A DNA stretch of 64,000 bases from an uncultured Alphaproteobacteria bacterium. GTDB taxonomy: Bacteria; Pseudomonadota; Alphaproteobacteria; UBA2966. The notes under the pieces were generated by a model. The model saw only the letters and a list, made by a program, of their open reading frames with translations, was not told the origin of the DNA and did no database searches. The stretch lies in the NCBI GenBank assembly GCA_958295725.1, contig OY282368.1, forward strand, positions 310,001 to 374,000, given 5' to 3'. The position numbers and the translations under genes are program-made. This document shows positions 34,725-37,416 of the stretch, in pieces (the first letter of the stretch is position 1; the number at the start of each line of letters is the position of its first letter).

Positions 34725-35903
34725 ATGCCGACCTTCGCCGAAGAACTCACGCTGCTGTTGACGAACGAGGACGGTGCGCTCCTCCCCGTCCAGAAGGATG
34801 CGTTCGAGTGCGCTCTGGCGGGCGCCGTGCTGATGGATCTGGCGTTCGCCCGTCGGATCGACACCGATCCGCGGGCGCTCACGGTCACCGACGACACGCC
34901 GACGGGCGATCCCGCGCTCGATCGTGTCCTGGCGAAGATCGCGGCGAGAACGGAACCGGAGGACACCCGGAAATGGATCAGGGAACTGTCCGTCGACGAC
35001 GCGGCCGCCATTCGCGAGCAGGTGTCGGCCGGCCTCGTGGCGCGCGGCGTTCTGGAAACGCGGGACGGGAAATTCCCGTGGATGCAGCGCTCCCGACGCC
35101 GCCCCGCTCTCGATGGCGAGCCCGGGAAGAGAGTGGGCCGGCGCATCGAAGGCGTGCTGCATTCCAACGATGTCCCCGACCCTCGCGATGTCGCCCTGAT
35201 CGCCCTTCTGGACGCCTGCGACGTCCTGCCCGACATCTTTCCGGGACGAGACATCGAACGATGCCGTCCCCGGATCGAGCAATTGCGCAAGATGGACCTG
35301 ATCGGCCGCGAGGTGGCCGGCGCGGTCGCGGATATCGAACGCACGATCGCTCTCGCGGTCCGGTTCCGGTCGGCGCGCTTCCGGGAAATTTCGCTGCTTC
35401 TCTCCATCGTCGGCGGCCTCGCCGCCGCGGCGACGCTCCTGGCCCCGCGCGTCCCCGTCCCGGATCGGTTCGGCCCCACCTGGCTGGAGCAGCTGTGGTC
35501 CGACGGGACGTGGCAACAGTGGAGCGGCTATACGCTTCTCGGGCTCAGCGGTGCGGGACTCTCGGCCGTCCTTCTCATGAGGGCGCGGCCGGTGGCCCGA
35601 CGGGGCGGCCATGGCTGGTCGCGGCTCGCCCATGCCGGGATCGGCCTGGCCTGCGCGCTCGCCCTGTTCGCCCATACCGGCTTTCGCCTGGGCGCCAATC
35701 TCAACGCGGCGCTCATGGGCTGTTATCTCGCCGTGCTCGTCCTCGGCGCGCTCGCCGGGATCTCGGTCAACGGAGCATCCCGACTCCGAAGAATGGGGAT
35801 CACCCCCAGACTTCGTGTCGTTCCGATGAGGCTGCACGTCATCGCGCTGTACCCCTTGCCGGCTCTCCTGATGGCCCATCTCCTCGTCGTCTATCTGTAT
35901 TGA
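34725..35903 (+). CDS. GPP34 (GOLPH3-like) domain fused to a cytochrome b-like membrane domain
   Basis: Residues 1 to ~220 match the GPP34/GOLPH3 family: FAEELTLLLTNEDGALLP, LAGAVLMDLAFARRID, TPTGDPALDRVLAKI and DPRDVALIALLDACDVL. In eukaryotes this fold binds phosphatidylinositol 4-phosphate. Residues ~225-392 carry about five membrane helices. Two of them each contain a His pair with 13 residues between (AHAG...FAHTG and RLHV...MAHLL), the pattern that binds two b haems in di-haem cytochromes b. It starts at ATG 34725 and stops 13 nt before a multihaem cytochrome c gene. Role inferred: membrane electron carrier for that cytochrome. GPP34 fusion of this kind is unfamiliar to me. Confidence 0.8.
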   Translation: MPTFAEELTLLLTNEDGALLPVQKDAFECALAGAVLMDLAFARRIDTDPRALTVTDDTPTGDPALDRVLAKIAARTEPEDTRKWIRELSVDDAAAIREQVSAGLVARGVLETRDGKFPWMQRSRRRPALDGEPGKRVGRRIEGVLHSNDVPDPRDVALIALLDACDVLPDIFPGRDIERCRPRIEQLRKMDLIGREVAGAVADIERTIALAVRFRSARFREISLLLSIVGGLAAAATLLAPRVPVPDRFGPTWLEQLWSDGTWQQWSGYTLLGLSGAGLSAVLLMRARPVARRGGHGWSRLAHAGIGLACALALFAHTGFRLGANLNAALMGCYLAVLVLGALAGISVNGASRLRRMGITPRLRVVPMRLHVIALYPLPALLMAHLLVVYLY

Positions 35904-35916
35904 GAGAGGACGGCGC

Positions 35917-37416
35917 GTGTCGCGGAAGGCGATTCTGTGGATCCTCTACGCGCTGGCGACCGCGGTCGCCGTGGGTGTCGTCGCAATGTGGATGGTCGTG
36001 GGCGGCGACCGGGGAATGCTCCCGGTCGGCGCGACGACAGACGCCCACCACCAGATCGATATGGCCTGCGAGACCTGTCACGCCGCACCGGCCTTCGCCG
36101 ACGCGGCCACGGCCCGGAAGGCCATGAACGAGACCTGCCGGAACTGCCACGAGGACGAACTGAGGGCCGCCGACGACAGCCATTCGCGCAAGAAATTCCG
36201 CGATCCGCGAATGGCGGTCTACCAGAGCAGGCTCGACGCGCGTCTCTGCACGACCTGTCACGTCGAGCACCGCCCGGAGATCACGCGCGCAGGCGCGGTC
36301 ACCATCGCGATGGACTTCTGCGCGGCGTGCCACGCCGAGGGCGATCAGGACGTACGGAAGGCACGGCCGAGCCACGCGGACCTGACCTTCGACACGTGCG
36401 CCTCGGCGGGCTGCCACAACTACCACGACAATCGCGCGCTCTACGAGGACTTCCTGGCCCGGAACGTCGGTCAGCCCTGGCTCGCGCCAGCTCCGACGCA
36501 CGAACCGTCGGCGCGCCATCGGGCCCGGCGGCCGCTCGGGGAAGCGGCGATCGGAAGAAGCGGCGCCGTGGCTCCGGCGGCGGCGCTCGCCGACCCGACG
36601 GCGCTGGACCACTGGGCCGGATCCGGCCACGCCGCGGCCGGGGTGAACTGCGCCGGCTGCCACGCGCCGACCGCCGCGCCGGGAGCCTCCCGCGCCGAGG
36701 TCGAGGCCCGCTGGACCGGGATGCCGGATACCGGCGTCTGCAAGGACTGCCACGCGGCGCAGGCGAAAACCTTCGCGCGGAGCCGGCATGGCATGCGCGG
36801 CCATCCCCTGATCGCGGCGCCCCGCGATCCCGAGCGGAGGCTGGAGGCCATCGGCCTCGGCGGTGGGCTGGGGAAAGCTGTCGCGGTCTGGTTCGCCGAT
36901 CCTCCCCGGCCCCCGCGCATGACCGTCGCCGAGGCCCGCCTCCCCATGCGCGCAGACGCCGCCCACGAGTCGCTCGATTGCGACACCTGTCACCAGCCCC
37001 ACGCGGTCGATATCGAGCAGGCCGCCGTCGAGGCCTGCGCGTCCTGTCACGACGATCGTCACACCCGCGCCTACTTCGGCGGCGCTCACCACGCGCTGTG
37101 GCGGGCGGAGCTCGCGGGCGAGGTGCCGCCGGGCGCCGGCGTGAGCTGCGCGACCTGCCACATGGTCAAGATCGAGCGTCGTGGAGAGATCGTGACCAGC
37201 CACAACCAGAACGACAATCTGCGACCGAACGAGAAGATGATCCGGTCGGTCTGCCTCGATTGCCACGGTCTCGGCTTCGCCATCGATGCGCTGGCGGACG
37301 CCGACCTCGTCGCCGGCAATTTCGACGGCATACCCGCGATCCATGTCGAGAGCATCGAATGGGCCGCGCGGCGCGCGGCCGCAGACCGGGACACGACGTT
37401 CATTCCTCCCCCCTGA
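35917..37416 (+). CDS. Multihaem cytochrome c (eleven haem-binding motifs)
   Basis: A 499-residue protein with one N-terminal membrane helix (residues 5-27, AILWILYALATAVAVGVVAMWM) and a long periplasmic part holding ten CXXCH motifs plus one CX4CH (CASAGCH), so up to eleven c haems. Spacing is irregular, with a motif-poor, Ala/Arg/Pro-rich linker near residues 185-245. GTG 35917 is preceded by AGAGAGGA. It belongs loosely to the cytochrome c3/multihaem oxidoreductase group; no specific enzyme (nitrite, tetrathionate or hydroxylamine) can be assigned. The upstream GPP34-cytochrome b gene is its likely partner. Confidence 0.88.
   Translation: MSRKAILWILYALATAVAVGVVAMWMVVGGDRGMLPVGATTDAHHQIDMACETCHAAPAFADAATARKAMNETCRNCHEDELRAADDSHSRKKFRDPRMAVYQSRLDARLCTTCHVEHRPEITRAGAVTIAMDFCAACHAEGDQDVRKARPSHADLTFDTCASAGCHNYHDNRALYEDFLARNVGQPWLAPAPTHEPSARHRARRPLGEAAIGRSGAVAPAAALADPTALDHWAGSGHAAAGVNCAGCHAPTAAPGASRAEVEARWTGMPDTGVCKDCHAAQAKTFARSRHGMRGHPLIAAPRDPERRLEAIGLGGGLGKAVAVWFADPPRPPRMTVAEARLPMRADAAHESLDCDTCHQPHAVDIEQAAVEACASCHDDRHTRAYFGGAHHALWRAELAGEVPPGAGVSCATCHMVKIERRGEIVTSHNQNDNLRPNEKMIRSVCLDCHGLGFAIDALADADLVAGNFDGIPAIHVESIEWAARRAAADRDTTFIPPP

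What the first reader, a model, noticed from the sequence alone, without database searches (positions are those of the whole stretch)
34725..37416. GPP34 (GOLPH3-like) domain fused to a di-haem cytochrome b-like membrane domain, paired with an eleven-haem cytochrome c
Seen: one frame encodes a clear GPP34 domain, then about five membrane helices, two of which each carry a His-X13-His pair, the spacing used to hold two b haems. Thirteen nt after its stop, a GTG with a good ribosome site starts a protein with ten CXXCH plus one CX4CH. Known: GOLPH3 proteins bind phosphoinositides and bacterial GPP34 proteins have no settled role. Inference: this is a membrane-to-periplasm electron conduit in which the GPP34 part is a regulator or membrane-binding sensor. 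I know of no described system of this composition.
Basis: partly seen in the sequence, partly recalled or inferred. Interest (0 to 1): 0.85.

Follow-up and report, generated by a model that had tools for sequence, protein, structure and literature searches.

The report
GPP34-capped transmembrane haem electron conduit
In some bacteria a membrane haem "wire" that relatives feed from NAD(P)H has lost its NAD(P)H-handling end and carries instead a bacterial version of GOLPH3, a protein known from the human Golgi, which gives a testable setting for what bacterial GOLPH3-like proteins do.

Summary
Window 34725-35903 encodes a GPP34 domain (PF05719, 145.7 bits) fused to five membrane helices with two His-X13-His pairs. 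Thirteen nt later, 35917-37416 encodes an 11-haem cytochrome c.

It recurs. I found 10 fusions; the cytochrome is next door in 9 and elsewhere in the genome in one. All four His are invariant in 32/32 related membrane domains. A third gene, a stand-alone c-haem Cache (Tll0287-like) protein, belongs too; in the window genome it lies about 0.5 Mb away.

The same core forms an operon in many genomes whose N-terminal module is a NirB-like FAD/NAD(P)H domain plus BFD [2Fe-2S]. GPP34 replaces that electron-input module. It joined this operon twice: as the fusion (one origin) and, in L017, as a separate gene. Related GPP34s are fused to P450s or sit beside STAS genes.

Best reading: a transmembrane b-to-c electron conduit whose NAD(P)H input was replaced by a GPP34 docking/gating cap. 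Anatomy and swap are well supported; donor, acceptor and GPP34's exact role are inferred. The phosphoinositide idea is weak: three of four PI4P-pocket residues are absent.

The parts
34725..35903 (+). gene for the GPP34 - di-haem cytochrome b-like fusion protein (392 aa)
   Evidence: open frame; 9 further fusions found
34725..35333 (+). GPP34 (GOLPH3-like) domain, residues 1-203, predicted cytoplasmic
   Evidence: PF05719 E 2.4e-42; AlphaFold model matches GOLPH3 3kn1 and Vps74
35361..35900 (+). five-helix membrane domain, residues 213-392, predicted to hold two b haems
   Evidence: hydropathy and charge pattern; family alignments
35631..35675 (+). TM3 His pair H303-X13-H317 (codons 35631-35633 and 35673-35675)
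   Evidence: invariant in 32/32 members
35835..35879 (+). TM5 His pair H371-X13-H385 (codons 35835-35837 and 35877-35879)
   Evidence: invariant in 32/32 members
35917..37416 (+). gene for the 11-haem cytochrome c (499 aa), GTG start, predicted uncleaved N-terminal membrane anchor
   Evidence: 10 CXXCH + 1 CX4CH; all haem motifs conserved in 7/7; adjacent in 9 of 10 fusions
36046..36426 (+). N-terminal five-haem part of the cytochrome (residues 44-170), cytochrome c3-like, including the CX4CH
   Evidence: PF14537 at residues 44-139; motif positions
36607..37311 (+). C-terminal six-haem part (residues 231-465), with local similarity to octahaem nitrite reductase/NrfA but no CXXCK
   Evidence: hmmsearch against PDB sequences

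Best explanation
A transmembrane electron conduit. Two b haems held by TM3 and TM5 carry electrons across the inner membrane to a membrane-anchored 11-haem periplasmic cytochrome c, and from there to (or past) a periplasmic mono-haem Cache protein (Tll0287-like) encoded elsewhere in this genome. In the wider family the cytoplasmic N-terminus is an NAD(P)H:FAD:[2Fe-2S] module that can feed the b haems directly. Here that module has been lost and a GPP34 domain, of the kind otherwise paired with STAS regulators, stands in its place. I propose that GPP34 is a cytoplasmic docking/gating cap: it recruits or switches the conduit's partner (a trans-acting electron donor or an STAS-type regulator), while electrons enter from the quinol pool or from that donor. 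Shown: composition, conserved His and haem motifs, topology by charge, module swap, third component, two independent recruitments of GPP34. Inferred: haem occupancy, direction of flow, donor, acceptor, and the docking/gating role.
For: Di-haem pattern and topology. Cytochrome and third gene conserved. Relatives carry NirB-like Pyr_redox + Fer2_BFD, or BFD + FNR-like, or cNMP + 4Fe-4S modules in the same place. NAD(P)H-class residues near the cytoplasmic face (RKR at 284-286, W at 376) are not conserved in the GPP34 class. GPP34 joined the operon twice, once fused and once in trans: monophyly of the two rejected, p-AU 7.6e-53. GPP34 also caps P450s. The window genome has no Fer2_BFD domain.
Against: No experiment. 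The membrane part could not be modelled. No quinone site or docking partner is identified. P450 fusions could equally mean simple membrane tethering. The STAS link is by gene neighbourhood of other GPP34s, not of the fusions. In G061 the fusion, cytochrome and third gene are all unlinked.
Confidence: 0.5

Rival explanations
1. Redox sensor rather than respiratory wire: the haem chain reads the periplasmic redox or NO state, and GPP34 passes it to an STAS (anti-anti-sigma-like) partner in the cytoplasm.
For: The fusion GPP34s are nested among GPP34s encoded directly downstream of an STAS gene (8/8 loci); STAS homologues exist in all carriers searched, though also in non-carriers; the Tll0287-like family includes NO sensors (PMC12889525).
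Against: No STAS gene was seen beside the fusions; PMC12889525 assigns stand-alone Tll0287-like proteins a redox rather than sensing role; relatives with NAD(P)H/FAD modules look built for flux.
Confidence: 0.2
2. Passive cap: the conduit is a quinol-fed wire, and GPP34 only stabilises or clusters it at the membrane, perhaps through its hydrophobic hairpin or lipid binding (nearest to the first reader's membrane-binding idea).
For: Eukaryotic GOLPH3 is a membrane-binding protein; an aromatic hairpin segment is often kept (alignment, sequences); GPP34 is also fused to P450s, which could need membrane tethering.
Against: The fusion is already an integral membrane protein; three of four PI4P-pocket residues are absent; two independent recruitments suggest a specific role.
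Confidence: 0.2
3. GPP34 is itself the electron-input domain and binds an unrecognised redox cofactor.
For: It stands in the place of the FAD/[2Fe-2S] module and is also fused to P450, another haem enzyme that needs a donor.
Against: The invariant GPP34 residues contain no recognisable FeS ligand set or Rossmann motif; no redox cofactor is known for the GOLPH3/Vps74 fold (established knowledge).
Confidence: 0.06
4. Chance fusion, assembly error or decaying pseudogene.
For: Rare: in a 398-genome phylum sample only the window genome has the GPP34 form.
Against: Ten open fusions with conserved His and haem motifs in unrelated assemblies.
Confidence: 0.01

Closest known systems
NirB-like FAD/NAD(P)H + BFD-[2Fe-2S] + di-haem b protein with 11-haem cytochrome c and Tll0287-like gene (L045/L080, L060-L077, L079; no description found in the papers searched)
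   Same: Same membrane domain with all four His, same 10+1 haem cytochrome next door, same third gene where flanks allow
   Different: Cytoplasmic module is an NAD(P)H dehydrogenase with FeS; here it is GPP34
GOLPH3 / Vps74 (PF05719, eukaryotic)
   Same: Same fold and family
   Different: Three of four PI4P-pocket residues absent; fused to a haem membrane domain
Streptomyces SCO4440 GOLPH3-like protein (PMC12402492)
   Same: Bacterial GPP34 protein
   Different: Linked there to a peptidoglycan carboxypeptidase gene and wall-deficient cells, not to cytochromes
Tll0287-like / sCache_heme proteins (PF11845; PMC12889525)
   Same: Third component: PF11845 with CXXCH, stand-alone type
   Different: Here tied to a b/c-haem conduit operon, a link not found in the passages of PMC12889525 that I read
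Cytochrome b561 / DUF4405 / ferric-reductase-type membrane haem domains
   Same: Helical membrane domain with paired His; sub-threshold Pfam matches (best E 0.0014 DUF4405)
   Different: No match over any curated cut-off; the window's own domain matches none

Membership tests
GPP34 / GOLPH3 domain family (PF05719) | Match to the family profile over the curated cut-off | tested here: met
   145.7 bits against 29.1
GPP34 / GOLPH3 domain family (PF05719) | PI4P-binding pocket (W81, R90, R171, R174 of human GOLPH3) | tested here: not met
   Aligned residues Q, A, A, R (residues from PMC4414131). A feature of the eukaryotic proteins; it lowers the claim of lipid sensing, not of family membership
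NAD(P)H-BFD-cytochrome b / 11-haem c / Tll0287 system | Di-haem membrane domain with four invariant His | tested here: met
   32/32
NAD(P)H-BFD-cytochrome b / 11-haem c / Tll0287 system | Partner cytochrome with 10 CXXCH + 1 CX4CH | tested here: met
NAD(P)H-BFD-cytochrome b / 11-haem c / Tll0287 system | Tll0287-like third component in the genome | tested here: met
   G000:C1:878879-879343, about 70% identical to the operon form
NAD(P)H-BFD-cytochrome b / 11-haem c / Tll0287 system | Fused FAD/NAD(P)H + [2Fe-2S] input module | tested here: not met
   GPP34 instead; no Fer2_BFD anywhere in the window genome. Hence a variant, not a plain member
Octahaem nitrite reductase / NrfA | Catalytic CXXCK haem | tested here: not met
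   All motifs end in CH; similarity limited to short stretches
Di-haem cytochrome b (any) | Binds two b haems | not testable with these tools
   Model too poor; needs spectroscopy

The most novel reading that the evidence does not exclude
Bacterial GPP34 is a general cytoplasmic adaptor for membrane haem redox proteins (this conduit, P450s), descended from STAS-partner GPP34s and acting as an STAS-controlled switch that turns electron export on and off: a regulated conduit in which a switch domain replaces the dehydrogenase.
Probability: 0.22. Interest if true: 0.88.

Novelty: new variant of a known kind. Interest (0 to 1): 0.72.

Why it matters
Bacterial GPP34 proteins have no settled molecular function. 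This places one physically on a defined, assayable machine and shows that the link arose twice, so the domain's role can be tested by deletion or swap with reduction of a multihaem cytochrome as read-out. It also points to what appears to be an undescribed three-gene b/c-haem conduit family with interchangeable cytoplasmic input modules (NirB-like/BFD, BFD + FNR-like, cNMP + 4Fe-4S, GPP34).

Tried and rejected
1) Two AlphaFold models: GPP34 good, membrane part poor (mean pLDDT 68.8 for the whole protein, 52.5 for the membrane domain alone). 2) Foldseek gave only GOLPH3/Vps74 at significant E-values; the membrane part gave noise. 3) The first GPP34 tree could not decide whether L017's GPP34 is kin to the fusions (p-AU 0.056); adding the second GPP34 of that genome settled it as an independent recruit. 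4) Chance, assembly error or pseudogene: rejected by ten instances. 5) The old module acting in trans: no BFD domain in the window genome. 6) The cytochrome as a nitrite reductase: no CXXCK, only local similarity. 7) Literature on GPP34 with cytochromes or STAS, on DUF3365 operons and on NirB-like/multihaem systems: nothing matching found, but the library is open-access only. 8) The cytochrome tree placed NAD(P)H-type L066 with the GPP34 class, but that row fills only 13% of columns; ignored.

Full report
OBSERVATION. Window 34725-35903 (+) encodes 392 aa. Residues 5-203 match GPP34 (PF05719) with E 2.4e-42, and the AlphaFold model of that part matches GOLPH3 and Vps74 structures. The C-terminal 180 aa hold five hydrophobic segments. 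Counting from the stretch before TM1, the loops and the C-terminus carry 5, 2, 5, 1, 6 and 0 K+R, which puts GPP34 and H303/H371 on the cytoplasmic side and H317/H385 and the C-terminus on the periplasmic side. After 13 nt, GTG 35917 starts a 499-aa protein with 10 CXXCH and one CX4CH.

RECURRENCE. A scan of GTDB-species contigs returned six further fusions (L003-L008) and one membrane domain without GPP34 (L017). Later calls added L081, L084 and L086, ten fusions in all with the window. The cytochrome follows directly in nine, with a gap of 12-13 nt in those measured. In L003 it lies elsewhere in the genome at 76% identity, while its close relative L084 keeps the pair together. All four His are invariant (8/8; 32/32 in the wider set), as are all 11 haem motifs (7/7).

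A THIRD COMPONENT. L004-L008 and L017 carry, after the cytochrome, a gene of about 190 aa that is Tll0287-like, PF11845, with one CXXCH. All eight carrier genomes searched have it. In the window genome it lies at G000:C1:878879-879343, about 0.5 Mb away, and in G061 it is also unlinked; both are about 70% identical to the operon form. Among 60 relatives, copies in ORFs under about 350 aa appear in at most two; the other PF11845 matches lie in much longer ORFs. PMC12889525 describes this family as a Cache domain with covalent haem c; members fused to signalling domains behave as NO sensors, stand-alone ones as redox proteins.

THE MODULE SWAP. A phylum sample searched with the membrane domain, then a search of the class of G183, found the same domain in about 27 of 321 genomes of that class at strong E-values. 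In nearly all cases read out it is the C-terminus of a 650-730-aa protein that starts with an NAD(P)/FAD oxidoreductase; the members scanned are NirB-like Pyr_redox plus Fer2_BFD. The neighbouring cytochrome has the same 10+1 haem motifs, and where the flank is long enough the third gene is Tll0287-like (L080; L079; L092). More distant variants carry BFD + FNR-like flavin domains (L046) or cNMP + 4Fe-4S domains with an FHA-multihaem partner (L057 and kin). So the core is a conduit with exchangeable cytoplasmic modules, and GPP34 stands where an electron-input module stands elsewhere. Features of the NAD(P)H class near the cytoplasmic face (RKR at 284-286, 20-21 of 21; W at 376, 21 of 21) are not conserved in the GPP34 class. 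G065/G626, evidently one genome reached twice, holds both types. The window genome has no BFD domain.

EVOLUTION. On the membrane-domain tree the ten fusions form one clade (93/83), with L017 as sister (99/96). On the GPP34 tree the fusion GPP34s form one clade (94/93) nested (98/96) among GPP34s that lie directly downstream of an STAS gene. L017 has no fused GPP34, but a separate GPP34 gene follows its Tll0287-like gene. That gene is 65% identical to, and the 100/100 sister of, the STAS-linked GPP34 of the same genome, and one origin with the fusions is rejected (p-AU 7.6e-53). GPP34 thus entered this operon twice. GPP34s are also fused to P450 in L024, L094 and L095.

MECHANISM. Shown: composition, conservation, topology by charge, swap, repeated recruitment. 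Inferred: electrons cross through the cytoplasmic-side and periplasmic-side b haems to the 11-haem cytochrome, then to the Tll0287-like protein or a further acceptor. With no redox cofactor recognisable in GPP34, entry is from quinol or from a docked donor. I favour GPP34 as a docking/gating cap because it replaced an input module, was recruited twice, caps another haem enzyme (P450), and comes from STAS-linked stock. Three of four PI4P-pocket residues are absent (residues from PMC4414131), which argues against a classical GOLPH3 lipid sensor.

LIMITS. The membrane part could not be modelled. The STAS linkage was seen in loci fetched for similarity to this GPP34, and no STAS gene was seen in the short stretches around the window genome's second GPP34 (L001) and the G002 copies. 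Haem binding, donor and acceptor are untested. The paper library is open-access only, so absence there is not proof that the system is undescribed; PMC12402492 (2025) states that GOLPH3-like proteins had not been described in prokaryotes before.

VERDICT. I class it as a new variant of a known kind of device (transmembrane b-to-c haem conduit), interest 0.72.

Noticed in passing
L009 5647-5982, L010 5656-5988, L011-L016, L098 1291-1698: Stand-alone GPP34 genes lie directly downstream of a ~110-aa STAS (anti-anti-sigma-like) gene in 9 of 9 loci of this subgroup: a lead on bacterial GPP34 function.
   Followed up: partly
L024 145-2163 (-), L094 2183-4210 (+), L095 782-2776 (-): GPP34 fused to cytochrome P450 in three genomes; several more GPP34 ORFs of 600-730 aa in carrier genomes may be the same.
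   Followed up: partly
L080 3857-7816 (-), L060-L077, L079: NirB-like FAD/NAD(P)H + BFD + di-haem b protein with an 11-haem cytochrome and Tll0287-like gene, in about 27 of 321 genomes sampled in one class; no description found.
   Followed up: partly
L047-L049, L052, L057: cNMP-binding + 4Fe-4S module with a related cytochrome b domain, next to an FHA-domain multihaem cytochrome.
   Followed up: no
L081 7603-11019 (-); G062:C61:2545-3135: Genome G062 holds a second complete GPP34-type operon and probably a third.
   Followed up: partly
G000:C1:2073412-2074002 (L001 1489-2136): The window genome has a second, stand-alone GPP34 gene; no STAS neighbour was seen in the short stretch fetched.
   Followed up: partly
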